Assembly: GCA_903813345.2 (NCBI GenBank)
Contig: CAIIXF020000002.1
Span: 30,932,926 to 30,996,925, forward strand
Length of the DNA: 64,000 bases
Direction: 5' to 3'
Source: Owenia fusiformis
Taxonomy: Eukaryota; Annelida; Polychaeta; Sabellida; Oweniidae
Below, one piece after another: positions 2,960 through 56,211 of this stretch. The notes under the pieces were generated by a model that saw only the letters and a list, made by a program, of their open reading frames with translations, was not told the DNA's origin and ran no database searches. Each line of letters starts with the position of its first letter. The first letter of the stretch is position 1. A program made the position numbers and the translations under genes.

Positions 2960-2996
2960 TATGCAAATTAGCTAATTTGCATAAATTGTGACGTCA
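2960..2996. promoter_or_regulatory. Octamer palindrome plus CRE-like site, copy 2
   Basis: A perfect 22-bp palindrome (2961-2982) made of two facing octamers is followed by TGACGTCA at 2989-2996, with the same spacing as copy 1. Confidence 0.45.
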
Positions 2997-3299: not shown

Positions 3300-4384
3300 A
3301 CTGTACATGAAAGTATGTGGAAATGTTACATGTATTTTGAATATCATTCACAGGGGTCAAAATCATGTGATCTTGATCTTGTATTTTAAAATCTAATTTT
3401 ATAATTTGCCATACACTGTCAATGATCCATATGAATACATAGTAATGCTTTAATTATGCTATTTTGACATATGCTGACTAATAAACATATCAATGTTAAT
3501 CTATATGGAAGAGTATTCCTGGTTTCATTTGATTTCTAGCATGTGAAAAAGCTGAAAACAAAATTTTGTTGATATTTGGACATAAACTAAATAAATCTTA
3601 ACTACCATTTTATATTTAAAATACAGATAGAGTGTCAACTTTAGAACTTATATGTAAACATTTCCAAAAATCAATGCCCAAAATAAGTCAATCGGTGGCA
3701 AATGGCGAGCCCATACAGCTAATGTGATAACTACTTTAGGGGAATTTTTCAACCTTCAAAATCCTTGGTGATTCAACCTTAGAATGATTTCTGTTATAGC
3801 TTTTCTGAAAATGGACTATAAGCAGATAGTAGGTACTTAAAGAAGCAAAATGAAGAGTAGTTTTTATATAATTTTACATAATATAACCTCTTCGATATGC
3901 AATGAAAAATGATGACAAAATCCATACAAGAGCTCAGTAGTAGTACCAGTAATCCTGAAATTAAAGTCTATTGATCAAAATAGTCATGACGAAAAAATGC
4001 CATTTAAAATATTTTTGAAAGAATTGATTTTTGTAGGACTTTAACTAACCCTTCCTACATCTACATATAGGTTTCCTACATCTATCTCTTATGTCCCAAA
4101 GTATGCATAGTATAGGACTTGTAATCTGAACTTGTTTTAAAAGGTTTCCAAAATATGAAATACCAAAAATCGATGAAAAATATGAGTCTGAAATGGATGG
4201 ATTTCAGGTATATCCCCATTGACTATGGATACCATTCAAAACTGAGAACCGTAACAACAGGAGATTTAAGTGCAAAATAAGTTAATTACGTAGTATGATT
4301 GACAGAGGTTGAATCTAAACTATTTTAATTTACACTTTTTATAGTTTAGAAGCTTTAATATGGAATGATCTAATCTAATCAATA
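3300..4384. other. Interior of the foldback element, no gene seen
   Basis: AT-rich sequence with no open frame of note, no splice-bounded exon I can defend and no clear repeat beyond short A/T runs. Confidence 0.6.
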
Positions 4385-7610: not shown

Positions 7611-8073
7611 TATAGATTACATCACAGATTTCACCATACTGATTTACCCATTCACTAACTGATTAATCCATAACTTTCTCACAAACAATAAATCATGTTA
7701 CAAAATAAAAAAAACAGTTTTGACCCCTGTCAATGATAGTCAAAATTATGAATACCCATATCATTTCTATACACCAACTACTTCAGTGACATGTAAAATA
7801 TATATTTTTCACTCAATAAGCTTGAATCGGTTTTGTTCATTTTTGTTATTTCAGTGTTTTATTTATGATTGTCAAATAGTAATGTTCATAGCAGCTGCCT
7901 CAAAAGCTGAATTACTTTACTAATACTCATTCAATTTTAAATATTTCTTGATGTTGCTCATACCTCTTCCACTCATAGAATAAATGACGAACTATGCAGA
8001 AACTACACCATCCAACCTCGGATCTAATAAATTTGTTGCTATACTTGGAAGTTCTGAGCCAAAAATAGATCGA

Positions 8074-8109
8074 TGACATCATAATTTATGCAAATTAGCT
8101 AATTTGCAT
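8074..8109. promoter_or_regulatory. Octamer palindrome plus degenerate CRE, copy 3 (right arm)
   Basis: This is the inverted-arm counterpart: TGACATCA at 8074-8081 (one mismatch to CRE), then the perfect octamer palindrome at 8088-8109. Confidence 0.4.
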
Positions 8110-8445
8110 AATTGAATATCGTTACCATACCGTTTATTCAATTAGGATCAATTCAATACCAAGACCTCCTCTATAAACCAAATAATGACAAAGCTACCAA
8201 ACATTTCAATTCTAAGGTAAGATGTTTAAAGTTAATTGTTCAATGATAACGTTCATGGTAGCTGCCCAGAAAGCTTAATAACTTTGTTAGTTCTGATCCA
8301 ATTTTGAATCTGTTTTCACTTTTATGTTGCTTAAACCTTCTGCTCATAGAATAGAAGTCATCACATTGAAGAAATTCTACCATACGGCTTCATTTCTTAA
8401 AGATACATTGCTATACTTGAAACTTCTGAACCAAAAATAGATTTA

Positions 8446-8481
8446 TGACGTCACAATTTATGCAAATTAGCTCATTTGCAT
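8446..8481. promoter_or_regulatory. Octamer palindrome plus CRE-like site, copy 4 (right arm)
   Basis: TGACGTCA at 8446-8453 is followed by facing octamers at 8460-8481 with one central mismatch. It is the inverted-arm partner of the outer left copy. Confidence 0.45.
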
Positions 8482-8786
8482 AATTGAATATTTTAATTAT
8501 ATGAGAAATTTAATTAGGTTTAATTTGATACCAATATCATATCTATAGACAAAATAAAGACAAAGCTACAAATGATTTAAGATTCCAAGGTAAGATGCCA
8601 ATAGATGCGTAACCATGGTAACGGAATGCTACAATACAGAGCAACCAATGAGAGTTTGCAAGGGCATCCGGCAAAAAATTGAACCTCAAAGTGTTACCTT
8701 TCAGAAAAGTATGGATGCCATAAATTAACAGAGACCGCCACGTTGGGTAAATTTTTTGAAACGATAGAGAGGCATGGGTTTCTAAC

Positions 8787-8891
8787 TATAATGTGTGAAC
8801 AATCCCCGGGATTGTCATGATTGTCATTTGATAAACGTTTCGTCCAGTACATACATCCGGGTTATAGAGAGTGAGAATAAACGCCATTACA
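8787..8891 (+). mobile_element. Gypsy 3' LTR, right piece
   Basis: After the right end of the foldback element the LTR resumes with TATAATGTGTG and ends with CATTACA at 8885-8891, the complement of the LTR start at 2260. An AATAAA lies at about 8876-8881, close to the end. The 5' LTR and its flank are outside the window, so the gypsy target duplication cannot be checked. Confidence 0.75.
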
Positions 8892-10556: not shown

Positions 10557-10969
10557 TATCACGAGGGGATTTTATTGTTTATTTGATGTTTACTTTTTGT
10601 TTCACTTTTGCGAAAATAATGTCAATTAAGTTTTGTATTTAGAGATGTACTCATTAACCCAGCAATTAGATTGAGGTCATTAAAATATTCTCAGACTTCT
10701 TCCTAAATATCTGTTTAAATTCAAGTGGTCATTTGTATTGTAGTTAGTTTTATGTAATCAGAAATATGAATGTATAATTTGTCACATGGTGTCTGGGAAA
10801 CCAGCTGACTTGTATTGTTGGGCAGTTTCGGCCTAACCTTCAAAATTATAACATGGAAAATAAAGACCTCTCACCAAATTCTAAAAAATTAAGAGTTAGT
10901 AATTAATTAACAAGAAAGAACAATGAACAAAATAAATATACAGAACACATATAAAAACGCCCCGTCATA
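10557..10969 (+). repeat. 5' LTR
   Basis: It starts TATCACGAGG and ends CCCCGTCATA. It holds an AATAAA near 10858 that could serve polyadenylation. It matches 15445-15811 and 16553-16641. Confidence 0.82.
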
Positions 10970-15444: not shown

Positions 15445-16641
15445 TATCACGAGGGGATTTTATTGTTTATTTGATGTTTACTTTTTGTTTCACTTTTGCA
15501 AAAATAATGTCAATTAAGTTTTGTATTTAGAGATGTACTCATTAACCCAGCAATTAGATTGAGGTCATTAAAATATTCTCAGACTTCTTCCTAAATATCT
15601 GTTTAAATTCAAGTGGTCATTTGTATTGTAGTAAGTTTTATGTAATCAGAAATATGAATGTATAATTTGTCACATGGTGTCTGGGAAACCAGCTGACTTG
15701 TATTGTTGGGCAGTTTCGGCCTAACCTTCAAAATTATAACATGGAAAATAAAGACCTAACCTTCAAAATTATAACATGGAAAATAAAGACCTCTCACCAA
15801 ATTCTAAATTCTATCTCACCATATTACGCAATCAGCGAGACTATATGAGATGATGACCATCATCTGACCAGCACTTGTTGACCGACATCTAGGCCATGCA
15901 CAGCTAGCTACTTAGATAAGGATTATCAAGTACCTTGAACTTTTAACAATACTTCCAGGAATTGGATATTATAATTACGCATTTACCTCATAGTTTTAGA
16001 TATATTACAAACATTTGAGGAAAAATGTCAGAAATGAATGAAAAAATGGAAAAATAACTTTTAGATGAAGATGAAGAATGCCAACAATCAGTCCAGGGTG
16101 ACATAAGTGGAGATAAACAATCAGTCCAGAAAAATTTCATGGATGCTCTTATGGAACGATTGGATCGAATAGAGAAAAGGCAGGCTGAGACGCAGCCTTC
16201 TACTTCAAAGCGTTTGAAGCGCACAATGGATTACCAATCTCCCCTGACTAACCTGTACCCCACAGCTTCGGATCCAGAAACATCCCCTGATGAGGAATCA
16301 GACGACTTGGATGATGATCAAAAATCCCTTTTAGAGAAATTGAGAACTACCCAGAGACCCAATAGAGAATCTGGGAGTGGTTCTGCTGGGATAGATTTCT
16401 CAGCATTAGAACTAGAGTTTGGGGATTCAGAGCCTCTTGGCCCACCCCTGCCTGAAGAATGGGCAAAGTTTGTAAACAAACGATTCAGTACAAAATTATC
16501 TACTGATACACTGAAGGCAAGAATGAAAGAGATCAAAAAGCCTGAAAATGTGGAAAAAAATTAAGAGTTAGTAATTAATTAACAAGAAAGAACAATGAAC
16601 AAAATAAATATACAGAACACATATAAAAACGCCCCGTCATA
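15445..16641 (+). repeat. 3' LTR, interrupted by a DIRS fragment
   Basis: 15445-15811 and 16553-16641 together match the 5' LTR. This copy has a 37-bp tandem duplication (CTAACCTTCAAAATTATAAC... twice, 15720-15795) absent from the 5' LTR. The middle, about 15812-16552, is foreign sequence with a DIRS-like gag frame. Confidence 0.8.
16025..16564 (+). pseudogene. DIRS-type retrotransposon Gag (ORF1) fragment
   Basis: The frame from 16139 encodes 141 residues: a helix with Arg/Glu repeats (MERLDRIEKRQAETQ), an acidic Ser/Asp-rich linker, then LGPPLPEEWAKFVNKRFST and LKARMKEIKKPENVE. The GPPLxExLAKxVNxRxSxKLS...KxxxRPENCE pattern is characteristic of DIRS ORF1 proteins. Upstream in the same frame, ATG at 16025 (MSEMNEKME) is followed by a TAA at about 16054. 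The frame ends where the flanking LTR sequence resumes, so the downstream part of the DIRS element is missing. The insertion boundary gives no clear target duplication, which suits DIRS (they integrate by a tyrosine recombinase). Confidence 0.75.
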
Positions 16642-24344: not shown

Positions 24345-24539
24345 GGGAGGTCTAAACTTCAACGGATTTGTTTGAAATTTTTTGTGCTTGCTTTCCTTTA
24401 TCAGGAGGCCAACTGGGCAAAACCATCTTGATCTGAAAAAAAAGTCGAAAAGTGAAACACCCTAGCACCTACTTTTGCGCGCCAGTTTTAACCCTGATAA
24501 TAATGATCAGTCCCTAATTTTATGTGAATGTGAAACACA

Positions 24540-24611
24540 TAGGCCAAGGGGAAAGTATATGTAAACCCAATACAAGATTTAGGTTTACGTATACTTTCCC
24601 CTTGGCCTATG
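24540..24611. repeat. Short perfect hairpin (30-bp stem)
   Basis: ATAGGCCAAGGGGAAAGTAT continuing to TGTAAACC is followed, after about 12 bp, by its reverse complement ending CTTTCCCCTTGGCCTAT, with one mismatch. It lies just left of the 24,685 transposon. Confidence 0.8.
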
Positions 24612-25138
24612 GTGAAACATGCCGCAAATTGCCTCAAAACTGAAACTGAGAAGCTCAATATAGGATAGCAATAATATCAATCTACAGTCTTCCAAACAAT
24701 TTTTTGAAGCAATCGAAGGATCAGCGCAGTGAATGAACGTGAGAATAAGGGGATTGAACATCATTTCTGTTTGTTGCATTCTGACCAATTGCAGAGTGGG
24801 AATAGTGGGGTCTGGGGTTCTCCCCCAGAAAATTTCAAAATTTGAACATCATTTGGTGCATTTGGACCAATTTCAGAGCATAAGTCCAATTCCCAGGTCT
24901 GAATTCAGTGTTTGTAATGTGTTGTTGACAATCCATCCATAACTATCTATTTTGATTGCTAGTTAAAATTCTGACTTTTTAAGGGGGTGTGCACCCCCCA
25001 TGCCACCCTCTAGATCTGCAAGTGCATGATAGCCAAACTACCAAAATATACAAAAGTTAGGTCTTTTACATATCGTCCCCTCAGTGTTATAATGTTCTAT
25101 GTCCATTTCGGCAAAAAGTAATATAATGTTAGATATAT

Positions 25139-28100
25139 CAGTTGGACGGCACATTGCCTTAACCCATCAGCTTTATGACGTGCACTTCCGCGTGGGACTA
25201 TATCTTTACAACGGGAATTTCAAGTTTTTGTCAGTGTAGACATAAAAAGTTGCGGTCCTCTCACTCGCGCAGTTTTTAATATTTTCATTTGAAACTTGCA
25301 GGAACGGTGCTTTGAATCTAGCTCTCTACTCTTTGAAAACGTCATGTAGAATCGAAACAGTTGAACTATTTATTTTTGGAAAAAATGTAACAAATTTTTA
25401 TTTCTTGTCATATTTATCCGATATTTTGTCATCATGAAATTCGAGATTCCTTTTAATGATGGTGCAAATTCCATAACAATTGATGAATTTTTATTATCAG
25501 AGTTATGTTTTCCAAAAACGGTGTAACACTGTGCATGTTTCTTTAATTGACGGCACAATTGCCTTTAATTGGGCGAATGTACAGGTCCCGACGCAATAAG
25601 CTTTATTTGATTAATACACTCAAAAATAAAGTTTGCTATCAAATTGGAATGTTCATAAAACATAAACCTTGCCTTTGTTTTCCCAATTCTAAAAGCAGGC
25701 CAAATAAACTATGAAAATCGTTTGACTCTCGAGACTACAGAACTTGAACATACTAAAATCGAAGTTACCTATAGTCACGCTTGTAAAGTTAATTATATGT
25801 TTAACGGCGTGCTGAGTGAATGTATCTAATCAAATTTGTGACATACCCATAAGATCGTAGATCACGATTCTAAGTTTAAAATGTAATTTGGATTCGTAAG
25901 AAGTATTTCTGTTTTAAACTTACCTTTGCTGTCTGAAAAAGATCAATATTCATAGACGGGAATGTTGAAACCTATATTTCCTTTGAATGACCTGCATTAA
26001 ATTGTACTACGAAATGATCCTGTGGAGAAAAGTTGATGAATTCCAAACAGCTAGTTCTAGCAAATCTACTAGTATAAGCTTACTTTCTTTCTTATTTCAA
26101 TGTTAAAAATATCTATTCAAATGTTTCATTTTTAAAATGATCTTGGCTTCCCTTAACTTAAATGTGTGACAAATGAAGAATGCTTTTTACCACATCAAAC
26201 TTAAGACGTGAATTTGACAATTACTCGTGTTATAACGCGATTTTCTTTCATTTTCTACAAAAATGGTATGTTTTCTAAAGGTCACTTATGTTAATCTATC
26301 ACCGTGGTATGATTGAAAATGAAAGAACTGAACCAAGTATTGTCGACTTGTTTGAATTATAAGATTTATTTTGATTGATTTAATCTCTTCTTGAATTTTA
26401 AAACTTTTGTCCGAATTACATCTGCTATGGAATTAAAGTTCAAATATACCTCAGAATTGCTTATTGAATTAACCTAGCAATTAATTTGAAAATAATTCTC
26501 TACATAGGTTATATATCATAGATCATAGATATGTAAAAAATAAAAATGTGTTTTGAAAGATGAATTGGTAACAAACGTTTTCGTACACGTGCCATTCTTC
26601 ACCTTCAGCCCACTTAAAGCACGAAATCCCGTATGACGTAATATAACGAAAATGCGCAGATAATTGATATTTTTTTGAATTTTAATTCAACTCACATTGA
26701 CCTTTCTTATTTAGAACGTGTTTAAAGTTCTCATGTTAAGAAAATAAATATGTGGAAAGGCAATGGTTTAAAGCTTATGAAAATGTCAAAATCATAATTC
26801 AGTTTTTAAAATAAGATATTGACATGCATTCACGCACATGTGACATTATCTCTTTTTGTGCGATTCAAACATAAAAATCTCATTACAGTTATACATATGA
26901 ACCAATCTTAGCCATGCCTTTCTAATAGAAGGAACTAAATTTGAATCAAAAAATAATTCTGTGTAAAGATGATTCCCCATAGATATAATAAATGTCAAAA
27001 ATGTCAAAAAAATATCAAAAATTAAATACTCACACGCTTTTAAGCACACATGACCTTTTCCAGTTTTGCTCATTTTATTTACCTTGAAAACCAAGGAGAC
27101 CGAACGCAATTGCTATATACAACCTTGATACGTGTACCAGGTCTATAATTGCATTTTCTCATTGAAGGAACCAAGCAAAAATTATAAAAATAATTCTGCG
27201 TAGAGGTGATGCTTCACAAATAATATTAATGTCAAAAAATTAATTCATTTCTTCAAAATTAAATACTGACACGCATTTACGCACACATGACCTTTTCCAG
27301 TTTTGCTTATTTCATTTACCTTGAAAATTAGACAGACTGGACGCAATTGCCCAATACTTCTTTGATACGTGTGCCAGGTTTATAATTGCATTTTCTCATG
27401 GAAGGAACCAAGCAAAAATTATAAAAATAATTCTATGTTAAGGTGATGCTTCACAAATAATATTAATGTCAAAACTTTTATTCATTTCTTCAAATCCAAA
27501 TACTGACACGCTTTTACGCACACGTGACCTTTTCTCCTTTTGCTCATTTTATTTATCCTAAAAATCAGTGAGCCTTAATACATTGTCCGATACTTCTTTA
27601 ATACGTGTCGGGTCTAAAATTGCAGTTTATCATGAAAGAAATCGAACAATTATTATAAAATAATTATGTGTAAAGGTGATGTTCTTCAGATTTTATAAAC
27701 ATCAAAATTGTAATTCATTTATTGAAATAACCACATGCTTTACGCACACATAACCTTTTCCCTTTTGTTCATTTTATCTATCTTTAAAATCAGTGAGCCT
27801 GAACTCATTGCTAAATACTTTTTGATACGAGTCAGCTCCAGGTTTAAAATTACATTTTATCATGGAACAAATCGAGCAATCATTATTAAAATAATTCTGT
27901 GTAAAGGTGATGTTCCACAGACAATATATATGTCAATTTGATAATTCAGTTACTCAAAATGAAATATCCACTACTTTTTGGATTCAACCATGCATATAAC
28001 GTCGTAAAATACACATTTCTACCGAAATTATGTCCAACCGTTTTCGCAGAAAATGTAACAAATGAAGGCATTTTATCGGAACTGATTGATATTTGGTACT

Positions 28101-28472
28101 TATAAAATATCGTATTTACTTTAACTTTTAAGCGATTTAGACATTTAAAAAAATGATGTTTAATCAATGTTAATTTCGCACGAATATAGGGTACAAAATG
28201 AGTGAAAGTCTCACGTGTTTGATTGCATTTTACTCCCATTTATGTGCATATTTCTAAAATCAAAATGAGATCGTTGGAAAGAAGAGATCAGTAGAATTCT
28301 ATCCGTCACTTTCATTTTCAAATGTTCAAATGTTTACCGTTTCAATGGACCTCATAAAGATGGTAGCCAACGGACCAGAAACAAGTAGTGCGATGACGTC
28401 ATATATCGCTACACCACTTTGATATAAAGTTTGGTAAACAACAATGGTTTTTTTCAATGTGCCGTCCTACTG
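25139..28472. mobile_element. Nested 3.3-kb non-autonomous element, TIR CAGTNGGACGGCACATTG
   Basis: Both termini read CAGT(T/A)GGACGGCACATTG inwards (18 bp, one mismatch) and TAT flanks both sides (25136-25138, 28473-28475). No coding frame is seen inside. It contains a five-copy tandem array. An internal GACGGCACAATTGCC at about 25,548 echoes the terminus. The superfamily is unknown. Confidence 0.7.
26690..27950. repeat. Tandem array, about 230-bp unit, five copies
   Basis: The marker GCACACATGACCTTTTCC recurs at 26,834 (variant), 27,044, 27,281, 27,518 and 27,743, giving periods of 210, 237, 237 and 225 bp. Each copy also has a GATACGTGT..CAGGT segment and a CATGGAAGGAACCAAGCAAA-like segment. 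The CACGTG/CACATG boxes are E-box-like. Confidence 0.8.
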
Positions 28473-28656
28473 TATGGTTCTGAGACATACTTCTTGTGAA
28501 GTTAAATGTTAAAATGTCCTATCTCTATTTTAATAAATATATAACAAGTGGCAAACTGTTCTATTTCCACTTTTCTGATAATCTGCTCCATACTATGTTA
28601 CCCTATGTCCTTGACCAATGAAATCTGTTGAATTTGTCATGTGACCAAAAGTTAAG

Positions 28657-28681
28657 ATGGTGGCAAAAAGAAAACAACAAA
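28657..28681 (+). other. Possible short first exon with GTAAGT donor
   Basis: ATGGTGGCAAAAAGAAAACA begins a basic eight-codon peptide that runs into a consensus donor (A|GTAAGT, GT at 28682). An acceptor TTTTCCAG ends at 28,929, right before the F-box-like frame. The phases do not join cleanly to that frame as it stands, so this is only a possibility. Confidence 0.25.
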
Positions 28682-28930
28682 GTAAGTTTGAAAACGTTTT
28701 TGTCATATTAATGAACCTTTATATATTTGATTCACCATAGTTTACATTCCTAGTATCATCTTCTATCATAAAGATCATTTTGATACTATAAACTTCTCCA
28801 TGTTGTGTCTGTATGTAGACAGATTGAAGATTTTACAAAAAACATGTTGGAAATAGAACAATATGACATTTAATCATTTTACTGAATGATATTGTTAGTT
28901 TAAAATTAGACCGATGCTTTGTTTTCCAGG

Positions 28931-29620
28931 ATGTTAGAATTCTTACCCAATGAACTCTTGATCGATTCAAAGAAGTTACAAAAATTATAGACTGGAGCAT
29001 TATCAATATAAGTAACACATCTTTAGATGAGGACGACTTAAAGTTGATCAAAGAAAAGTGTAGAGACTCAGATGAATTTTCCATTCTAGGAACAAACACT
29101 TCATTCGATAGAGAAGTTGTATTTGACTTTGATTTTTACATATTTGATACCTTAACAAATGGGGAGAATATTACATGGTTATCATTAGACTTTTGCCCAG
29201 TGTCAACGTTGATAGTACTGCGACATTTGCCAAATATTGAGATTTTAAGTCTTTTGCACTGCAATAATCTTGTACCAGACGACATAACCGCAATACAACA
29301 TTGCAATAGAATTGAACAGTTATATATATCGCATACAGGTATAACGGCTATATCACTTCTGGACGTGTTATGTCGTGGACGTGTTATGTCGTGGACGTGT
29401 TATGTCGTGAACGCTTTGAGAATCTATTCTGTATCGATTGCCAGGGAATCGAATTTACATTTTTAGAGATACTTGCAACAACTCAGGTTGTGGGCAAGCT
29501 GTACTACTTTGGCCTAAGTTTGTTTCCAACACTGACATTGCCGATGTTCAATATGCACTTCAGAGACCGATATACCCACATAGACTGGAGATTGTTCTAA
29601 TTGTAGTAATCATGAGTTGA
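28931..29620 (+). pseudogene. Broken F-box / leucine-rich-repeat-like gene
   Basis: ATG at 28931 gives MLEFLPNELL, an F-box start. A frame change near 28,960 leads to DRFKEVTKIIDWSIINIS and the frame holding 29,044-29,466, with LRR-like segments (WLSLDFC, LPNIEILSLLHCNNL, DDITAIQHC, IEQLYISHTGI). A third frame from 29,406 (RFENLFCIDCQGIEFTFLEI) continues in the same style to 29,600. The second break is explained by 2.9 tandem copies of a 16-bp unit at 29,359-29,406: removing two copies (32 bp) restores the frame. F-box/LRR proteins are substrate receptors of SCF ubiquitin ligases. Here the gene looks dead. It lies 85 bp upstream of the transposase-like gene on the same strand and within the same transposon. 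Confidence 0.55.
29359..29406 (+). repeat. 16-bp tandem repeat that shifts the reading frame
   Basis: GTGGACGTGTTATGTC is present about 2.9 times. Sixteen is not a multiple of three, so expansion from one to three copies moves the frame by two bases. Confidence 0.9.
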
Positions 29621-29704
29621 TAAACATCATGGCAAAGAGCTTGTAGTGTACATGGATCAAGACAGCAGATTAAGACTATACTCACTGAAATTAAATTAAT
29701 CTAA

Positions 29705-31486
29705 ATGCCTGATGAAAAGGATGTACCACCTGTTAGGGCCAGGAAAAGACAAAGGGATATTGAAAATTGGAAGTGTAATATAAGAAAAAGATTAAGACAA
29801 TCAGGTCACGAATATGTTGATTCCAAAGGTAGATTTAGGTTGAGGAAATCAGTAAAAAACAGAAAAGATTGTCTTAGGTGTAAATATGAGTGCAGTCTTA
29901 ATATTTCCTCGAAAGAAAGACAAGAAATACATAGTGACTTTTGGAAGTTGAATGACAATGAGAAATGTAATTTTTACAACAAAACTACGAAGAAAACATT
30001 GAAAACTAGAACAAGAACAAATAAACAAAAATCTAGGAGAAACTTTACATTAAGATATTTTTTCATCGTGAAAGATGAAAGTGTTCGAGTTTGCAAAGAC
30101 TTCTATTTAAGTACCCTGGACATTTTGGCTAGAAGAGTTTCATATTTCCATGAAAATAAACCAGAAAGTGGTATCCCAAAAAGATCTGCCTCAGGTAGAC
30201 ATCGAAAAAGATTTATCCCTGAAGCAAAACGTAATGAAGTGAGAAAACACATCAAGTCTTTCCCTGTTGTTGAATCCCATTATTGCAGGGCCAAGACAAA
30301 ACGTCAATACCTAGATTCTTCCCTCAGTCTCTCAAAAATGTATCGCCTCTACTCCCAAGAAACACTTGATCCAGTCAAAATCCATGTATATCGTGATATC
30401 TTTAACTCTGAATTTAATTTTGGATTTCACCAACCACGAAAAGACTTATGTGACCTATGTGAGGAGTACAACGCATGTAAAAAAAGAAATGATACCATAG
30501 GAGATGAACTTCTCGAAAAATATACAAACCATAAAGCAAGTAAGGATGCGACCAAAGCAGAGAGAGATAAAGATAGGTTGATAAATGAGGAAACACATGC
30601 AGTTATATGTGTTGATCTGGAGAATGTCATTACAGTCCCAAAAGCCAACATTGGATGTTTTTACTACAAAAGAAAACTAGCTACATATAACCTCACAGGT
30701 CACGTCAAAATAAATGGTAGAAAATCCGGAATATGTTGTGTATGGAATGAATCAGAAGGTGGGCGTGGGAGCAATGAGATAGCAAGTGCTATAGTATGCA
30801 TATTGAATGAAGTCATTGAAAAGAACCAGGAAATTCGACATATAACGCTATGGTCAGATTCATGTGTCTGCCAAAACAGAAACTCTGTATTAAGTATGGC
30901 AATCAAGAATGTACTTAAAAAGTACATGCAAGACAATCCAAACAAAGCACTAACTATTACACAGAAATACTGTGAACCAGGACATTCTAGTATTCAAGAA
31001 GTGGACAGCATGCACAGTATTATTGAAAATGCCCTAAGTAATAAGGACATATTTAGTCCGCAGACTGTATACGCCCTACTTCCTTACGAAGTCATTAATA
31101 TGGCAGAAAGGGGCTTCTATGACTTTAAAAAGCCAGCAAAAAACTGGCGATTTAACATGATACCATATACCAAAGTTAAACATGTAAAGTACATGTCAAA
31201 CTCACCATATAGCATGGAATACAAAACATCCTTCATTCAGGAATATAGTGAAGATGTATCCATCAGACCAACAACAAGAAAACATGATGCAGGAACGCCA
31301 ACAAAGCTTTCCAAGATTGAATGGCCCAGAGTGGAAAGGATAAAACAAAAACCAGAGCTATCTTTAGATAAGATACATGACATCACATCTATGCTAAAAT
31401 ACATGCCAACAAGTGACATGATTTACATGAAAAACATTACTTCAAAATACAAAGTAATGCCTAAGAGGGGAAGGAAGAAAAATTAG
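29705..31486 (+). CDS. 593-residue transposase-like protein (DUF7869-like, RNase H fold suspected)
   Basis: This is an intact single-exon gene. Residues 1-50 are very basic. A Cys cluster lies at 56-63 (CLRCKYEC). Residues 170-215 carry HIKSFPVVESHYCR and LSLSKMYRLY, typical of a large invertebrate family of unnamed proteins. A second Cys pair is at 249-252 (CDLC). The core has CVDLE (Asp304), then FYYKRKLATYNLTGH, WNESEGGRGSNEI, WSDSC (Asp385) with CQNRN, and EPGHS followed by EVDSMHSIIE (Asp434, Glu441). Acidic residues spaced like this suggest a DDE/D-type RNase H fold; this is inference, and the DUF7869 label is from memory. The C terminus is basic (KRGRKKN), possibly a nuclear signal. 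The ATG at 29705 is the first Met of the frame. AATAAA signals lie downstream (31,676 onward). It lies inside inverted repeats with TA flanks, so it is the likely transposase of that element; a domesticated host gene is the alternative. Confidence 0.72.
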   Translation: MPDEKDVPPVRARKRQRDIENWKCNIRKRLRQSGHEYVDSKGRFRLRKSVKNRKDCLRCKYECSLNISSKERQEIHSDFWKLNDNEKCNFYNKTTKKTLKTRTRTNKQKSRRNFTLRYFFIVKDESVRVCKDFYLSTLDILARRVSYFHENKPESGIPKRSASGRHRKRFIPEAKRNEVRKHIKSFPVVESHYCRAKTKRQYLDSSLSLSKMYRLYSQETLDPVKIHVYRDIFNSEFNFGFHQPRKDLCDLCEEYNACKKRNDTIGDELLEKYTNHKASKDATKAERDKDRLINEETHAVICVDLENVITVPKANIGCFYYKRKLATYNLTGHVKINGRKSGICCVWNESEGGRGSNEIASAIVCILNEVIEKNQEIRHITLWSDSCVCQNRNSVLSMAIKNVLKKYMQDNPNKALTITQKYCEPGHSSIQEVDSMHSIIENALSNKDIFSPQTVYALLPYEVINMAERGFYDFKKPAKNWRFNMIPYTKVKHVKYMSNSPYSMEYKTSFIQEYSEDVSIRPTTRKHDAGTPTKLSKIEWPRVERIKQKPELSLDKIHDITSMLKYMPTSDMIYMKNITSKYKVMPKRGRKKN

Positions 31487-31675
31487 GTACAAGAAAGCAT
31501 GGGTAAAGGAGATATAAGATGATAATTGAGAGACTTACTAATAGCGCTTTTTTATCTATATACAAGTATATTGCAGTTACTTGTGTTGTAGACACATTGA
31601 TCTAAGATTTCTTCATCCTAGCATTGATGTGCGATTTGAATTTTCATTTGATCAATAGTGATTAGTTGTTTTATA

Positions 31676-32315
31676 ATAAATGCAAAATGCATTGCAAAAT
31701 AAAAATTTGTAGAATGAGTTCTAAATACTAGATAGTAGAAGTTTTATTGTGTTGAAGACACATGGACTTTATTTGAACAATGATGAGCGGTTTTATTCTA
31801 ATTTCCAATCATGGGTAAACATGACTGTTATATAGGGCTATAGGTTATGTAGGCTAAGTAAATAAGTAAATAAAGTAAGTAAATGCAAAATGTATTGCAA
31901 AATAAATAAAAATTTGTAGAATGAGTTCTAAATACTAGATAGTAGAAGTTTTATTGTGTTGAAGACACATGGACTTTATTTGAACAATGATGAGCGGTTT
32001 TATTCTAATTTCCAATCATGGGTAAACATGACTGTTATATAGGGCTATAGGTTATGTAGGCTAAGTAAATAAGTAAATAAAGTAAGTAAATGCAAAATGT
32101 ATTGCAAAATAAATAAAAATTTGTAGAATGAGTTCTAAATACTAGATAGTAGAAGTTTTATTGTGTTGAAGACATGGACTTTATTTGAACAATGATGAGC
32201 GGTTTTATTCTAATTTCCAATCATGGGTAAACATGACTGTTATATAGGGCTATAGGCTATGTAGGCTAAGTAAATAAGTAAATAAAGTAAGTAAATGCAA
32301 AATGTATTACAAAAT
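31676..32315. repeat. 207-bp tandem triplication
   Basis: The marker AGAATGAGTTCTAAATACTA occurs at 31,711, 31,918 and 32,125, a period of exactly 207 bp. Copies are nearly identical; the third lacks two bases in GACACATGG. Each copy contains AATAAA motifs, so it may supply repeated polyadenylation signals to the upstream gene. Confidence 0.92.
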
Positions 32316-32876
32316 GAAAGTTGCGGAATGGAATAGCAGCTATTTTGTGTAATTTATGAGTTCATATTTGAAACTCCATTTAAACAGTGATGTCAGAAGA
32401 GATTCATATTTTTGTATAGTTTATTTTTGTAATAAAATGCATCACCAAGAAAAATGTTCTGTTGATAAACTATCAATGAAAATCCATGCTTTAAATTTGA
32501 CTTTAAATTTTATTGATTCATATTGTTCTATATCCATGAACCAAAGGTTCATTTAAACTACTTTGTTCTATCTCCATTTTCAAAGTTTTAAAAAAAAACA
32601 TATGAACACTTGACATACCCATTTAATGGAAAAACACACTCATATTTAAGACAGTTAAAATATCCTGTTGAGAAATAGCTTGAAACATTTGTCATTTCTT
32701 ATAATTCCTAAATATAAATGCTGGTTTTTCTCACTTCACACATTTTGTGATTTAGAACACTATAACACTGAGGGCACGATATGTTTGTATTTCTTCATAT
32801 ACTGTTGCAATTTGATCCTTCGATTGCTTATTTTTTAGAATCAAATTCTTCAAAAAAAATTGTTTGGAAGACTGTA

Positions 32877-34042: not shown

Positions 34043-35829
34043 TGATATATGAAAAATCTAAGTGCTTTTGATGTCATTAACAATAATATAGGTTAGAATT
34101 GTTTGCCTGATGAAAAAATATAATCCTGTAAAATTTATATATCCTTTATGATATAAGTTTGACAATGTACATTTTGTTATTTTCTGTCAAATTGGTGCAA
34201 AACATGTGGGGCGGCTAGCTATATGTTGATATATCTTTTCATCTATTAGAGATAGAGTATTAGAGTCTTACTTTAAAAGTGAATTGAAGGGATGACATTG
34301 CTCTATTGAATAAGTTGTTTAACAAAGCTATAGATGTAATAGTAATGACAATGCACCTTTAACCCTTGCAGTTTAGGTTTGTGGCCTAGTTTATGGTTTA
34401 GAAATAGTAGATAGGGGTGTTGAGTTTCAATTGATATTCCTTTGAAAACTATTAAGAAGGTTTTAATGATTAAAGTATTACATATGTAAGTTTTAGGTTT
34501 TGATACAGAAGTTTGCAGAAAAATTATAAAAACTTAGTTTGAAAATCATATCAATGACTGGAATTAACACAATCAATGTACTGTCACTCCTTTTTTCAAA
34601 AATAGAGCTGCTCAGTCTGTGCATGTATCACAAATTAAATGCACTGTAAAATTATTTTCGTGCATATATCAATAAATTAACAAACCAAAATACTCTAAGC
34701 TGATTGGCTGAGAAATACTTGGTATGTTTGAATATTGTGTAGAGTAGAGGTCCTATAAAAGAATGTTATCCGAGCAGGCAAATGATTCTAAAGCTTCTGG
34801 AAAGATTTCCCAAATTTAGCAACAGATGTTTATGCACTGATCTCCCCAACATTAAAGCAAGAGGGCGCTGAACCCACCTGAGATTTGAAAAAGCAGTCTT
34901 ACACCCACCTGAAAAGCCATTTGCACCCACTTGAAAATGAAAAAATAATGAAAAATGGGCATATTTTGCAATATTAACTGCATTCACATAATGAATAGTG
35001 TATAAAATATACATAATGCATTTGTTGTGCACAGTTGCTAAGTGATTGAGCTTGAAATTGAGTTGTCCAATACCTGACCCTCGCAAAAAGTTTCATTGAA
35101 AATATGTTCTTTTTTTGATTTTTGTATGTTTTAAGCGACATGGTAGAAAATATTTTGCAATGTGTGATGAGAATTTAAGCATTGGACTCAAGTAACACAT
35201 TACTGTTAAAAACTTGAGTTTTGCTCACGTTAAGTATGCAACATGAGTGTTTGGAAAATAGATATGACAAGGAATGACATGAGCTTAAACATTCTAAAAT
35301 TGAGACAATTTTTGGAAATGTTGCTTGATACTCCCCTCACATACAATTTGGCAAACTAATAATCTTGACATTTCACTTCAAATTAGTCATATGTATCCCA
35401 TCAACTAATTTATAATAATGTCATTTAAGTCTACTTAAAAACTCCCTCAGGATTCTAGTAATCTGACTTTGAAGTTGGGTATTATACGTTTTTGTGGACG
35501 CCCTGTATAACAATATGAATATTCCATTGCCACACAATTCTATACATGATGACTTGATACATAACATATACACATCTCAGAGGGCACTGGATTGAAAAGA
35601 ATATGCTATCAATATGTTCATGTCAGAACATTAAGTATCAGTTCTTAAATATAATATGATATGATATGACATGGACTCCAATCCTTTACCTCATTAGTAT
35701 ATCCCAATGAAACGTTCTTTATTCGTAACTTAAACAAACTTTGATTTTACCTAGATTTTGACATTGGTTGGTTGGTTTGGGTTACTTGGTATTGGATTGG
35801 GTTGGTTGGTGTTGGTTTGAGTAGCAGTG
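34043..35829. other. No gene seen
   Basis: Non-coding AT-rich sequence. The 106-codon minus-strand frame near 34.8-35.1 kb has no recognisable domain. Confidence 0.45.
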
Positions 35830-35835
35830 TTGGCT

Positions 35836-36839
35836 TGGGTGAGTTGGGTAGGTTGGGTGAGTTGGGTAGGTTGGGTGAGTTGGGTAGGTTGGGTGAGTTG
35901 GGTAGGTTGGGTGAGTTGGGTAGGTTGGGTGAGTTGGGTAGGTTGGGTGAGTTGGGTAGGTTGGGTGAGTTGGGTAGGTTGGGTGAGTTGGGTAGGTTGG
36001 GTGAGTTGGGTAGGTTGGGTGAGTTGGGTAGGTTGGGTGAGTTGGGTAGGTTGGGTGAGTTGGGTAGGTTGGGTGAGTTGGGTAGGTTGGGTGAGTTGGG
36101 TAGGTTGGGTGAGTTGGGTAGGTTGGGTGAGTTGGGTAGGTTGGGTAGGTTGGGTAGGTTGGGTAGGTTGGGTGAGTTGGGTAGGTTGGGTGAGTTGGGT
36201 AGGTTGGGTGAGTTGGGTAGGTTGGGTGAGTTGGGTAGGTTGGGTGAGTTGGGTAGGTTGGGTGAGTTGGGTAGGTTGGGTGAGTTGGGTAGGTTGGGTG
36301 AGTTGGGTAGGTTGGGTGAGTTGGGTAGGTTGGGTGAGTTGGGTAGGTTGGGTGAGTTGGGTAGGTTGGGTGAGTTGGGTAGGTTGGGTGAGTTGGGTAG
36401 GTTGGGTGAGTTGGGTAGGTTGGGTGAGTTGGGTAGGTTGGGTGAGTTGGGTAGGTTGGGTGAGTTGGGTAGGTTGGGTGAGTTGGGTAGGTTGGGTGAG
36501 TTGGGTAGGTTGGGTGAGTTGGGTAGGTTGGGTGAGTTGGGTAGGTTGGGTAGGTTGGGTGAGTTGGGTAGGTTGGGTAGGTTGGGTGAGTTGGGTAGGT
36601 TGGGTGAGTTGGGTAGGTTGGGTAGGTTGGGTGAGTTGGGTAGGTTGGGTGAGTTGGGTAGGTTGGGTAGGTTGGGTGAGTTGGGTAGGTTGGGTAGGTT
36701 GGGTGAGTTGGGTAGGTTGGGTGAGTTGGGTAGGTTGGGTGAGTTGGGTAGGTTGGGTGAGTTGGGTAGGTTGGGTGAGTTGGGTAGGTTGGGTGAGTTG
36801 GGTAGGTTGGGTGAGTTGGGTAGGTTGGGTGAGTTGGTT
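35836..36839. repeat. 18-bp G-rich minisatellite, about 56 units
   Basis: The unit is GGGTAGGTTGGGTGAGTT, two 9-bp halves GGGTAGGTT and GGGTGAGTT that mostly alternate. At several places (about 36,145-36,165 and 36,550-36,720) the TAGG half is repeated without its partner. The period is a multiple of three, so five of six frames stay open for over 340 codons; these are not genes. GGG tracts every 9 bp make the plus strand a candidate for G-quadruplex formation. Confidence 0.97.
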
Positions 36840-36848
36840 GGTCGGTGA

Positions 36849-37062
36849 CATTGACTAATTGACATTGACTAATTGACATTGACTAATTGACATTGACTAA
36901 TTGACATTGACTAATTGACATTGACTAATTGACATTGACTAATTGACATTGACTAATTGACATTGACTAATTGACATTGACTAATTGACATTGACTAATT
37001 GACATTGACTAATTGACATTGACTAATTGACATTGACTAATTGACATTGACTAATTGACATC
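36849..37062. repeat. 14-bp minisatellite, about 15 units
   Basis: The unit CATTGACTAATTGA is repeated almost perfectly. It begins directly after the 18-bp array (GTCGGTGACATTGACT junction) and ends at CATCGACTACTATG. Confidence 0.97.
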
Positions 37063-37074
37063 GACTACTATGTG

Positions 37075-39620
37075 AAGACACTTTAAAGGAATATATATCC
37101 TGACTTTCAATCAAAAATATTAATTTGTAGTCTCGTACTTTAGAAACTTAGATAGCATAGATTGTGACCTAATTCGATGACCTTCACAATTGACCCTAAA
37201 ACTTGAACAGACCTCAGAACGTCTTTTATAATTGAGCTGACCTAAATTTGAAGGTCAAATGCCAAAATTAAGGCCAGATTTTAACTCCTAAGGACATTAA
37301 ATTATTTAAGATGAATTTAAAGCGAGTTGAAATTTGGTCTCGAAAAATTTCGAAATTGAACTCTCAAAACTGGTACAAAATTATAATAGACAGTCAATAG
37401 CTAATATGTGTAGAACCTTTGGGGAAATATATAATCATACTTTCAATCTAAAATATTGATTTGTAGTCTCAAACTTTGAGAAACTTAGATAACACTGTCT
37501 GTGATATAGTTTGATGACGTTGACCTTTGACCTTGCAAATTAGATTAGATCTCAGTAGGTCTTTTGTTATAAAATATTCTTGGATTTAAATCCAGAAAAT
37601 CAATTTGAAAAATCAACTTTTTGACCTTTTGAAGGTCACTAAAGGTCAAAACCAAGGTCAGATTTGAAATTTAACTTGATCTTGAAAAAAATGTTTGGTC
37701 AATTTGAAGCAAGGTGAAATTTGGTCTTGAAAAATTTCGAAATTTGACCTTTTTAGTTTTTGAGCCCTTATTTCTCAAAACTGGTGCAATCTTTTAATAT
37801 ATAGCCAATAATATGCCAATGATAGCTAATATGTGAAAAGCCTTTAAACAACTATATATCCTGATTGTTATTTAAAAATATTGATTGGTAGTCACCAACT
37901 TTGAGAAACTTAAAAAATCACAGTTTGTGGTTTAGTTTGATGACCTTGACATTTTACCTTGCAAATTTTACTTTTTATGACCTCAGTAGGTCTTTTGTGA
38001 TTAAATATACCTAAATTTGGATCCAGAAAATCAAGTTAAAAAATCAACTTTTTTGACCTTTCGAAGGTCACTGAAGGTCAACAAACGGTCAAAGGTCAAA
38101 AGTAAGGTCAGATATGAAATCCTGAGAACTTGTAAATGGTTTTAAAAAAAGGTTTAGTCAATTTAGAGCAAGTTGAAATTTAGTCTTGAAAAATATAGAA
38201 ATTTGACATTTTTCAATTTTTGAGCTCTTATATCTCAAAACTGGTGCAAAATTTAAATAGATAAGCAATAGCTAATATATGTAAAACTTTTAGAGGAATA
38301 TGTATCCTGACTTTCATGAAAAAATATTGATTTGTAGTCACCAATTCTGAGAAACTTAGAAAACACAGTTCGTGATTTAGCTTGAAGACCTTGACCTTTG
38401 ACCTTGCGAATTTCACTTTTTTAGACCTCAGTATGTCTTTTGTGACTAAATATACCTAAATTTTGAATCCAGAAAATTGATTTGAAAAATCAACTTTTTG
38501 ACCTTTTGGAGGTCACTGAAGGTCACCTAAAGGTCAAAAGTAAGGTCAGATTTGGAATCCTGAGAACTTGTAGATGAGTTTTAAAAAAAAGTTTGGTCAA
38601 TTTAGATCAAGTTGGAACTTGTAGATGAGTTTTAAAAAAAAGTTTGGTCAATTTAGATCAAGTTGAAACTTGACCTTGAAAAATTTCAAAATTTGACTTT
38701 TTTCAGTTTTTGAGCTCTAAAATCTCAAAACTGGTGCAAAATTTTAATAGATAATCAATTGTTAATATGTGTAGAACCTTTACTGGAATATATATCCTGA
38801 CTTTCATTAAAAAATATTGATTTGTAGTCACCAATTCTGAGAAAATTAGAAAACACAGTTCGTGATTAAGCTTGATGACCTTGACCTTTTGATCTGCAAA
38901 TTTTACTTTTTTAGGCCTCAGTAGGTCGTTTGTGATTGAATATACCTAAATTTAAATCCAGAAAATCGATTTGAAAAATCGACTTTTTTACATTTCGGAG
39001 GTCACTGAAGGTCAACCAAAGGTCAAAGGTTAAAAGTAAGGTCAGATTTGGAATCCTGGGAATTTGAAGATGTTTTTTAAAAAAAAGTTTGGTCAATTTA
39101 GATCAAGTTGAAATTTGAACTTGAAAAATTTTGAAATTTGAACTTGAAAAATTTTGAAATTTGAGCTTTTTCAGTTTTTGAGCTCCAATATCTCAAAACT
39201 GATGCAAAATTTTAATACATATTCAATGGCTAATATGTGTAGAACCTTTACAGAAATATATATCCGGACTTTCATTAAAAAATATTGATTTGTATTCACC
39301 AATTTTGAGAAACTTAGAAAAGTTTGAAATTCAGTTCAATGACCTTGACCTTTGACCTTGCAAATTTTACCTTTTTAGGCCTTAGGAGGTCTTTTGTGAT
39401 TAAATATACCTAAATTTAAATCCAGAAAATCGATTTGAAGGTCACTGAAGTTCAACCAAAGGTCAAAGGTCAAAAGTAAGGTCCAATTTGGAATCCTGAC
39501 AGCTTGTAGATGAGTTTAAAAAAAAAATTGGTCAATTTGAAGCAAGTTGAAAAAAGACCTTTTTTGACCTTCAATATCTCAAAATCTGGGCAAAATTTCT
39601 CTAGACGGCAAAAGGCTAAC
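37075..39620. repeat. Satellite with 345-490-bp monomers rich in AGGTCA hexamers
   Basis: About six diverged monomers are visible. The marker GACCTTGACCTTTGACC or a variant occurs near 37,170, 37,515, 37,942, 38,386, 38,876 and 39,343. Every monomer carries TCTCAAAACTGGTGCAAAAT, a TTGATTTGTAGTC block and clusters such as AAAGGTCAAAGGTCAAAAG. The clusters are AGGTCA hexamers spaced by one base (DR1) or nested, resembling nuclear-receptor response elements. Local duplications occur (for example 38,560-38,660, 33-bp-scale repeats). No gene is present. Confidence 0.9.
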
Positions 39621-41222: not shown

Positions 41223-42803
41223 ATGTTTTACATTATTCTGTGGAAAGAGACTAGAGAATTATCAATCATCAGTCATATAAGTTTAGTTAGAATATGCGAC
41301 GAAAGCATTAGGAGGGAAGGGCCCTTAAGCTTACAAGAAGGAACAATACTCAATCTGAAACATGATAAAAAACTGTTCCAAGCAGTCGTCATCAAAATCG
41401 TGAAAAGTAAGTTAATTCTGAATTTCTTGTCTCAACTCACTGTGCTCAATATGGGCTGTGTTATTGTGAAAAATCACTAGTTTCACACGATATATAGTGT
41501 TATCTGAGGTTGTCTGTAACTAGACGTCTAACTGAAAGCAGAGTCACACATCTCCAAATGCAGATATGTCTCTGCTGAAATTGAACTGTTGTGTCACTGT
41601 TCTGGATCTGTAACGGAATAGTTTTAAAGTTGATGGAACTGATATTGAATTCACAATTTCCAGAGATTCATTCCACAAAATTTGAACTGAAAGCATGTCT
41701 TTAGTTGCAACATGTGCTTTTTGTTAGAATAACTTTAATTTTGATCAATGTATGTTTTATTCTATTCATAATATTAATAGGCCTAATGATGTATATTTTT
41801 CTTATATTTCAGAAAAGAAAGATGCAGAAGACATTTGCAATGAGAAACTCAGAAAGAGTGCTCTAGCAACCTATATGACAGATACAGACAGGCAAGACAG
41901 CACAGACACGGGTGCAGACACCACAGATGATGATGATGATCGCCGTGAGACGCCCAAGAAATCCACAGATGATGATCATCATGAAGATCCTGAGACACCC
42001 CAGCACTCCAAGGAGACCAAAAAATCCAGCACTAAGGATAGGTATGGTATTATCTATAACATTAAATTTTTTATTCCACTTATTAGTCTATGTTCTTTAA
42101 ACTACTAGTATTTCAATCCTTCCCCCTAAAAATAACATACTTATTAGTACCCAATTTCATCCGACTGTTTATTTATTTCCATTTTTATTTTATTTTATCA
42201 AAGAAAATAGCTGCAATATTTGATATTACTAGTGATGTCGAATTCACTAATACTTTTTATGATTTGGGGATCAAAATTGGCATAATTCATTAGGATTTTG
42301 ATGTGATAAATAATGAAAAGGTAATGTGAATTTTCATGAGCTAAAAAACAAGGGGAGGGGGGTATAACGGATTCATAAACTTTATTAAAGAGTACTTAGC
42401 AAATAATTGTTTTTTTTATTCCAGGGTAGCAGTGCTTGAAAAGCGTTACCAATCACTTAAAAGAAAACTAAACGCTTTGGAAGACAGGTTATTGGATATG
42501 GAAGAAAAACCTCGAGAACAAAATGATGCTGAATCCAACTTGATAGAAAAGGTGAAACACCTTCAATCTACCGATGTTCAAGACGTTATCGTAACGCTCT
42601 CACAACAAGTCTTCACAAAAGAGGAACTCATAAATCGTAGTGTAACAGGCAAGAAGTCCCATCTCGGCCAAAAGCCCCCACTTAAAACTGAACTCTACAA
42701 TGAGTTGCAACGAGTTTGCATGCTAAAGACGGGTTGCTCGAAGGATGTTTTCAGGTCAAAGTTCAGAAATCTGCAGAAGGTATTAAGACGAAAACCAATG
42801 TAA
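41223..42803 (+). CDS. BEN-domain protein, three exons, 263 residues
   Basis: Exons are 41223-41406, 41813-42041 and 42425-42803. Donors GTAAGT (41407) and GTATGG (42042), acceptors TATATTTCAG and TTATTCCAG. Phases 1 and 2 match exactly, giving 264 codons including the stop. Exon 1 starts MFYIILWKETRELSIISHIS, resembling the small beta-rich N-terminal module of invertebrate BEN proteins. Exon 2 encodes an acidic, Asp/Thr/Ser-rich linker. Exon 3 encodes a short coiled coil (VAVLEKRYQSLKRKLNALED) followed by a BEN domain: VIVTLSQQVFTKEELINRSV, TGKK, PPLKTELYNELQRVC and DVFRSKFRNLQKVLRRK. BEN domains bind DNA and mediate chromatin or transcription contacts, typically in the nucleus. The exact gene is not recognised; a transposon-associated BEN protein is possible. 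Confidence 0.82.
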
Positions 42804-49703: not shown

Positions 49704-51172
49704 ATGATACGGTTAAAATATTTCCTTACAAATTGGGATGGAATATCCTTATTCTATGACCGGAATCTTACTACCGCAAACGACATCAAGATATGGACTG
49801 ATAGTAGTTCTACTATTGGTTTTGGTGGATATTTCGAATCACACGGGCGGTGGTTTGCAGCAAAATGGGACGACTTCACATGGGATGATATAAACCCTCA
49901 AGATTTATCTATGGCTTTCATGGAACTATATCCCATTGTTGTTGCCATTATACTCTGGGGTTCACTACTGTCACAAAAACGAATTGTATTTTATTGTGAC
50001 AATTTAGCAACTGTTATAGCTATTAGGAAAGGGGGGTCAATATCATGAAATTAATGAGAATGTTAACGTATCAATTGTGTAAGAACAATTGTTTGATTAC
50101 CTCTCGTCACATTGAAGGGGTCAGGAACAGATGGGCTAATTTTTTATCACGTGATATGTTACAGCATTTTCTGGGAGAAGTGGGTATGGAGAACAATCTA
50201 CGACGAGAGACATGCCCTCAGCCCAAGGAAGTTTTGTGGACTTTTAACGCCAGTGACCAGTGGCTTGATTCGGTAGCACCATCAAAAAGAAAATTATGTA
50301 TCTGCATTCAAGAAATATTGTACTTTAATGGCTGGATGTGGTTTCGTTTGGACGACTAATCTACCTCCACTGGGCGAATCATCGCTACTTAATTTTATAA
50401 CTTACTGCAGTAAACAAAATGTTAGGACAACTACCATAGAAATGTATATTAGTGGTATCAAATATCACTACATGAGTTGTAATGGTGATTGCACGGTTTT
50501 TGCAGATACAATGTCTCTGACAAAAATCACTCAATTGCTGAAAGCAGTGAAACGTAACCAAAATAATGTAATTAATCAGAAACTACCCTTAACTTTTGAT
50601 AATCTTAGTAAAATATGTGTAGTTTTAGAATCTGATTTATTAGACCAACACACAGATGCACTTATGAAGTGTGCTTGCATTGTGGGATGGTTTGGATTTA
50701 TGAGGGCATCTGAGTTCACGGCACCTGGAATCTTTCAATTCGACCCTAGTAGTAATCTATCCAGGTGTGATGTGAAATTATTTCCTGATAAAGTGTCTAT
50801 TACTCTTAAAAATTTAAAACAGATCCCTTCAGGGAAGGTGTTACTTTTGACCTTTTCCGCACTGAATCTACCGATTGCCCTCATGAATGTGTTCTATCTT
50901 ATTTAGAAATGTTACAGGAAAGAGGACTTCATAGTTCCAATATGAACTGTGCCTTTTTTGTGGAACGCACTGGTCTGCCTTTAACAAGATGGTCGTTTGT
51001 TGAAAACTTACTGGCAATTCTATGGCACTTAAAAATACCAAATGTTGACAAATATAGTGGTCATTCATTAAGACAAGGTGCTAGTTGCACAGCCAGTGTG
51101 TGCCATGTCAATGAGCATGTTATCAAACGACTAGGGAGATGGCGTTCAAACTGTTTTGAAAGATACATCTAG
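49704..51172 (+). pseudogene. DIRS-type RNase H plus tyrosine recombinase, frameshifted, RT mostly missing
   Basis: It begins with a residue of the RT end (LKYFLTNWDGISLFY), then RNase H (WTDSSSTIGFGGYFE, FMELYPIVVA, FYCDNLATV, RHIEGVRNRWANFLSRD) to about 50,150. The recombinase N-domain follows (SVAPSKRKL, TTTIEMYISGIKYHY), then the catalytic part with Arg in GFMRASEF, HSLRQGAS, and the GRWRSNCFERYI box with the nucleophile Tyr. Three frame changes are present: near a G6 run at about 50,033, near 50,350, and near 50,815. The RT fingers and palm are not found between 49,447 and 49,704. DIRS elements integrate through the recombinase instead of an integrase. This copy cannot be autonomous as it stands. 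Confidence 0.85.
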
Positions 51173-56209: not shown

Positions 56210-56211
56210 AT

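What the first reader, a model, noticed from the sequence alone, without database searches (positions are those of the whole stretch)
24685..32874. Candidate undescribed DNA transposon: 593-codon gene between TA-flanked inverted repeats, with a possible captured F-box/LRR gene
Terminal repeats CAGTCTTCCAAACAATTT... and a second inverted block (CCCTCAGTGTTATA) bracket an intact gene whose Asp304, Asp385 and Asp434/Glu441 look like a DDE/D centre. Such proteins are common in invertebrate databases as unnamed families; seeing one between TIRs with a TA duplication would show it to be a transposase. The F-box/LRR-like gene on the same strand could be a captured host gene or a second element gene.
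Basis: partly seen in the sequence, partly recalled or inferred. Interest (0 to 1): 0.78.

Follow-up and report, generated by a model that had tools for sequence, protein, structure and literature searches.

The report
Nested transposons, inner one perhaps Sola2-like
An intact protein gene probably belongs to an inner jumping gene with its own ends that landed inside a small unrelated one, so the outer ends first noticed are probably not the ends of the gene-bearing element.

Summary
The inverted repeats and the intact 593-codon gene are real. Their assembly into one element is probably wrong; the evidence fits nesting. The outer TA-flanked pair (24685-32874, CAGT ends) looks like a ~0.48-kb non-coding element (MITE). 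The gene-bearing element lies inside the second inverted block: 25074-32778, 26-bp TIRs CGTSCCCTCAGTGTTATARTGTTCTA, 4-bp ATAT duplication. The motif GTTCTATNTCCA occurs 5 times in the 64 kb: 5 of 5 are in the two end regions of the inner element and 0 in the outer arms. A third pair (25139-28472, TAT flanks) probably marks a later insertion. The predicted secondary-structure order of the protein core fits an RNase H-type DDD/DDE domain, but the models are weak and no fold-library match was significant. The closest described kind is Sola2: 4-bp AWWT duplications (PMC3627910) and a DDD transposase (PMC10741241). Protein homology to Sola2 could not be tested. The upstream LRR-like gene is broken and no F-box was detected. 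No host genome is held, so further copies and empty sites are untested.

The parts
24683..24684 (.). TA flank, left (target duplication of the outer element)
   Evidence: the only direct flank match among 10 cuts tried for this pair
24685..25073 (.). left arm of the outer TA-flanked element; TIR at 24685-24723
25070..25073 (.). ATAT, left copy of the proposed target duplication of the inner element
25074..25099 (+). inner element, left TIR (CGTCCCCTCAGTGTTATAATGTTCTA)
25094..25105 (+). subterminal motif GTTCTATNTCCA, copy 1 (overlaps the left TIR)
25139..28472 (.). probable nested 3.3-kb TIR element (CAGTWGGACGGCACATTG ends) with a 237-bp tandem array at 26949-27936; TAT flanks at 25136-25138 and 28473-28475
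   Evidence: its inverted pair alone is within chance
28558..28569 (+). subterminal motif GTTCTATNTCCA, copy 2
28848..28859 (-). subterminal motif GTTCTATNTCCA, copy 3
28931..29600 (+). broken LRR-like gene spread over three frames; longest open piece 28954-29466
29705..31486 (+). 593-aa putative DDD/DDE transposase; D304 at 30614-30616, D385 at 30857-30859, D434 at 31004-31006, E441 at 31025-31027
   Evidence: no Pfam hit for the whole protein, none above cut-off for four sub-segments, no PDB sequence hit
31677..32315 (.). 207-bp tandem repeat, 3.1 copies, 97% matches, inside the inner element
32525..32536 (+). subterminal motif GTTCTATNTCCA, copy 4
32565..32576 (+). subterminal motif GTTCTATNTCCA, copy 5
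32753..32778 (-). inner element, right TIR
32779..32782 (.). ATAT, right copy of the proposed target duplication of the inner element
32779..32874 (.). right arm of the outer element; TIR at 32813-32874, with 23 bp more than the left TIR
32875..32876 (.). TA flank, right

Best explanation
Three nested layers. Layer 1: a ~0.48-kb TA-flanked TIR element with CAGT ends and no gene (outer arms 24685-25073 and 32779-32874). Layer 2: inside it, a cut-and-paste DNA transposon, 25074-32778 (7.7 kb; about 4.4 kb without layer 3), with 26-bp TIRs, an ATAT duplication and one intact 593-aa protein that is its own transposase. Inferred mechanism: the protein binds the TIRs and the GTTCTATNTCCA repeats at both ends, cuts with an Asp-Asp-Asp (or Glu) RNase H-type centre, and inserts at short AT-rich 4-bp targets; it most resembles Sola2 transposons. 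Layer 3: a 3.3-kb TIR element with TAT flanks that later inserted 65 bp inside the left end of layer 2. Shown by sequence: the inverted repeats, the flank matches, the motif distribution and the intact ORF. Inferred: the nesting and its order, the transposase activity, the Sola2 kinship.
For: Inner pair 30 of 32 nt, score 26, above each of 200 shuffles. The cut at 25074/32778 gives a 4-bp direct flank repeat, ATAT, the longest of the 10 cuts tried for that pair. A search for 12-mer clusters (one mismatch, at least 4 G/C) in 1,959 nt of the inner element outside the transposase ORF, the 207-bp array and the nested block has TGTTCTATNTCC as its top cluster with 5 copies; 60 shuffled sets gave 2 or 3. 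The exact motif GTTCTATNTCCA occurs 5 times in 64 kb: 5 in layer 2, 0 in layer 3, 0 in the outer arms; mean 0.007 (maximum 1) in 300 simulations. Copies lie near both inner ends and one overlaps the inner left TIR. The arms outside the inner pair are unequal (389 and 96 bp), as expected for an insertion target. The core prediction has the order b-b-b-a-b-a-b-a with D304, D385 and D434/E441 at RNase H positions; the whole-protein prediction gives the same order without the second strand. Sola2 elements are described with 4-bp AWWT duplications including ATAT (PMC3627910, section 11 read); Sola as DDD, mostly 2-9 kb, 4-bp duplication, TIRs 11-1124 bp (PMC10741241, passage).
Against: No second copy of any layer in the window and no host genome, so no empty site is shown. 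ATAT is a palindrome and cannot be told apart from a longer TIR (the inverted match runs on through ACATAT, where a 2-bp TT also matches) or from a 2-bp TA or AT duplication. Fold models are poor (pLDDT 31.7 and 49.2). Foldseek's first three PDB rows are isocitrate dehydrogenases (E 0.018-0.084); RNase H-like rows (Piwi/Argonaute, RNase HII) come at E 0.16 and above. Layer 3's inverted pair scores 15, within chance. With one mismatch the motif also occurs twice elsewhere in the window (7 in all). I noticed the motif by eye before the unbiased search.
Confidence: 0.68

Rival explanations
1. One reading: one 8.2-kb transposon with the outer TIRs and a TA duplication. The second inverted block is an internal transposase-binding site and the 593-aa protein moves the whole.
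For: Outer pair 23/23 plus 17/17 collinear, TA on both sides; the intact ORF lies between.
Against: Arms outside the second block are 389 and 96 bp; the outer arms hold 0 of the 5 motif copies; a separate 4-bp flank repeat fits the inner block.
Confidence: 0.17
2. The 593-aa protein is not the transposase of either pair of ends: a host or passenger gene caught between repeats, with the elements moved by enzymes encoded elsewhere.
For: No sequence relative was found in any collection searched and catalysis is not shown.
Against: RNase H-like order of predicted elements with acids at the expected places; the gene is intact beside a decayed neighbour; binding-site-like repeats flank it on both sides.
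Confidence: 0.08

Closest known systems
Sola2 group of the Sola superfamily (PMC3627910: passages and section 11 read; PMC10741241: passages read; original description by Bao et al. 2009 recalled, not held)
   Same: 4-bp AT-rich (AWWT, e.g. ATAT) duplication; single putative transposase with an inferred DDD centre; element length within the described 2-9 kb; TIR length within the described 11-1124 bp.
   Different: 26-bp TIRs against 12-13 and 21 bp in the amoebozoan Sola2 examples; 593 aa against 888 aa in DFa-2; no Sola2 protein was at hand to align.
Tc1/mariner-type MITEs (for the outer pair only)
   Same: TA flank and CAGT ends (the ends as a family trait are recalled), short, no gene in the arms.
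   Different: No autonomous partner and no second copy seen; the family of the outer ends is unknown.
KolobokP (PMC9587614, abstract and section 9 read)
   Same: DDD/E animal transposon with more than one set of terminal structures.
   Different: KolobokP has long direct terminal repeats and, in most families, a His-Me finger nuclease; here the two end blocks are different inverted repeats and the only other gene-like stretch is LRR-like.

Membership tests
Sola2 | 4-bp AWWT target duplication | tested here: inconclusive
   ATAT at 25070-25073 and 32779-32782, but palindromic and from one copy
Sola2 | transposase homologous to Sola2 transposases | not testable with these tools
   no Sola2 sequence is held; Pfam has no match to the protein
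Sola2 | DDD catalytic centre in an RNase H fold | tested here: inconclusive
   element order and acid positions fit (one search lacks the second strand); low pLDDT; no significant fold match
Sola (superfamily) | TIRs of 11-1124 bp and length mostly 2-9 kb (PMC10741241) | tested here: met
   26-bp TIRs, 7.7 kb with and about 4.4 kb without the nested block (lengths from coordinates)
   no host genome held; no second copy in the window
DUF7869 (PF25273) | match to the Pfam model | tested here: not met
   likeness recalled by me; hmmscan listed no PF25273 row at E <= 10 for the protein or its four sub-segments (HMMER's filters drop most matches above about 0.1)
F-box/LRR gene | F-box plus LRRs in one open frame | tested here: not met
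   three frames needed; LRR_4 below cut-off and no F-box

The most novel reading that the evidence does not exclude
The 593-aa protein is the transposase of a DDD/E superfamily that has no name yet, carried by elements with CGTSCCCTCAG... ends, a 4-bp (or TA) duplication and GTTCTATNTCCA subterminal repeats; it would give the unnamed invertebrate proteins of this kind (recalled) a mobile-element identity.
Probability: 0.25. Interest if true: 0.65.

Novelty: new member of a known kind. Interest (0 to 1): 0.36.

Why it matters
If right, it ties a 593-aa protein without a Pfam family to definite transposon ends, and it corrects which ends those are. A search with the outer ends would recover a small unrelated element; a search with the inner ends should recover the real family.

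Tried and rejected
Homolog searches that found nothing: viral contigs with the protein (2 pattern stretches, neither a relative) and with four degenerate motif patterns (0 stretches each); phages by tblastn (no match). One genome contigs pattern scan gave 2 loci; tblastn of the protein against them gave one alignment, E 0.69, in L002 (and the same, whose row labels are misleading because its script read one file that holds all loci). Pfam DUF7869 was looked up through the genome search with phage lambda as a mere handle: the model exists, 0 of 1 records matched, and it rang in 0 of 14 control genomes, so that search shows nothing about absence. Fold searches gave no match at E <= 0.001 in PDB or BFVD.

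Literature: DUF7869 is in 0 papers of the library. Three searches for new transposon superfamilies listed 17, 15 and 4 papers; no title or abstract start in those lists names this protein family, and the papers were not read for it beyond those cited. Sola papers were sought (25 of 437 listed; 22; 8). Bao 2009 and Yuan & Wessler 2011 are not held.

Considered and rejected: the outer pair as ends of the gene-bearing element (see rivals); KolobokP architecture; a 5' exon from the ATG at 28657 for the LRR-like stretch (by eye on the frames it does not join; no gene finder was run).
Full report
What is there. The window has 34.5% G+C. No whole genome is held for it, and tRNA and Rfam (gathering threshold) scans give 0 hits. 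It looks eukaryotic, probably invertebrate (inference). The second block is 30 of 32 nt (25068-25099 / 32753-32784). On an ungapped inverted-repeat score the two reach 23 and 26; best scores in 200 Markov-1 shuffles of the 8.8-kb region were median 16, 95% 18, maximum 24. So the inner pair beats every shuffle, and the outer 23-nt stretch beats 95% of them before its 17-nt continuation is counted. The 593-codon ORF is far beyond chance: the longest in 200 shuffles was 148.

Why two elements rather than one. First, flanks. Of 10 cut positions tried for the inner pair, the cut at 25074/32778 gives the longest direct repeat, ATAT (4 bp); for the outer pair only TA fits. Second, a repeated motif. 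A search for 12-mers within one mismatch (words with at least 4 G/C), in 1,959 nt of the inner element outside the transposase ORF, the 207-bp array and the nested block (the LRR-like stretch included), has TGTTCTATNTCC as its top cluster with 5 copies; 60 shuffled sets gave 2 or 3. In the whole window the exact motif GTTCTATNTCCA occurs 5 times: 5 in the inner element, 0 in the outer arms, 0 in the nested block; the simulated mean for the inner element is 0.007, maximum 1 of 300 runs. With one mismatch there are 7 in the window, 5 in the inner element and 0 in the outer arms. One copy overlaps the inner left TIR. With the nested block discounted, the copies lie within about 0.45 kb of the inner ends (from coordinates). 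Subterminal repeats of this sort bind transposase in several superfamilies (recalled), so they tie the inner TIRs to the gene between them. I noticed the motif by eye first; the unbiased search came afterwards. Third, the arms outside the inner pair measure 389 and 96 bp, natural for an insertion target and odd for one element. Together they would make a ~0.48-kb TA-flanked element with 39-bp TIRs, i.e. a MITE.

A third layer. CAGTTGGACGGCACATTG at 25139 and the complement of CAGTAGGACGGCACATTG ending at 28472 bound 3.3 kb without any ORF of 100 aa or more, but with a 237-bp tandem array. TAT stands on both sides exactly at these ends. The inverted pair alone is within chance (score 15 against a shuffle median of 16), so this layer is likely but not certain. 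It would have landed 65 bp inside the left inner end. Without it the inner element is about 4.4 kb.

The protein. It has no Pfam match at E <= 10; four sub-segments gave three weak rows (DNA gyrase B twice, a phage zinc-binding domain), all 12-14 bits against a cut-off of 27. It has no PDB sequence match at E <= 10. No relative was found in viral contigs, phages or the two pattern-matched genome-contig loci; none of these collections is meant to hold animal genomes. Single-sequence AlphaFold gives mean pLDDT 31.7 for the whole and 49.2 for residues 290-472, too low to trust as models. The core prediction orders its elements as strands 297-305, 316-321, 341-348, helix 355-372, strand 379-384, helix 395-410, strand 417-421, helix 433-444; the whole-protein prediction has the same order without the second strand. 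That is the RNase H order, with D304 near the end of the first strand, D385 just after the fourth, and D434 and E441 in the last helix. Foldseek found no match at E <= 0.001 in PDB (587 matches at E <= 10) or BFVD (671). The first three PDB rows are isocitrate dehydrogenases (E 0.018 to 0.084); Piwi/Argonaute rows, which are RNase H-like, come at E 0.16 and above with the highest probability of the 50 rows shown (0.54), and RNase HII at E 0.30. The catalytic reading is plausible, not shown.

The LRR-like gene. Between 28931 and 29600 an LRR-like coding stretch is split over three frames, with a 16-bp tandem repeat at 29360-29413. LRR_4 scores 20.3 to 24.1 bits against a cut-off of 27. A read-through query matches 29 distinct PDB sequences at E <= 1, nearly all LRR proteins, the best at E 4.5e-06 and mostly bacterial internalins; the first row named as an animal protein, Lysine-specific demethylase 2A, is at E 0.056. 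No F-box was detected. It is a broken gene, perhaps captured, and not a second working gene of this copy.

Comparison with known kinds. PMC3627910 (section 11 read) describes Sola2 elements with 4-bp AWWT duplications such as ATAT, TIRs of 12-13 or 21 bp and an 888-aa transposase. PMC10741241 (passage) describes Sola as DDD transposases with 4-bp duplications, mostly 2-9 kb, TIRs 11-1124 bp. PMC10294476 (passages and section 12 read) counts 14 Sola2 transposons in its curated bivalve library. The inner element agrees with the Sola traits that I could look at, apart from longer TIRs and a shorter protein than the amoebozoan examples. The decisive trait, homology to a Sola2 transposase, could not be tested, and a palindromic duplication seen in one copy is soft. 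I file it as probably Sola2-like, not as a proven member. The likeness of the protein to DUF7869-type proteins is recalled and was not borne out by hmmscan.

Verdict. The most likely content is one small TA-flanked element, hit by a gene-bearing transposon with other ends, itself probably hit again.

Noticed in passing
63335-63736 (+): ORF with a YqaJ-type nuclease domain (Pfam PF09588, E 1.5e-12) near the window end; such nucleases occur in some DNA transposons and viruses (recalled).
   Followed up: partly
10557-10969, 15445-15808 and 16555-16641: Split direct repeats at 99-100% identity with ORF 16058-16564 between the last two; the layout recalls DIRS/PAT-type retrotransposons (recalled, not tested).
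   Followed up: no
50277-50906 (+): ORF that by eye looks like part of a tyrosine recombinase (DIRS/Crypton type); no Pfam hit at E <= 0.01.
   Followed up: partly
24538-24611: 33-nt near-perfect hairpin (94%, 8 nt between the arms) just outside the outer left end; the highest-scoring inverted repeat of the region (score 27).
   Followed up: no
2278-3362 and 7718-8789: Inverted ~1.1-kb copies at 79% identity, possibly long terminal inverted repeats of another element.
   Followed up: no
35745-36882, 37065-39552, 56144-57881: Large tandem or simple repeat arrays; the first and last are open in several frames on both strands.
   Followed up: no
42345-42803 (+): ORF with a weak DUF4806 match (E 0.0021, 18.8 bits against a cut-off of 25).
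   Followed up: no
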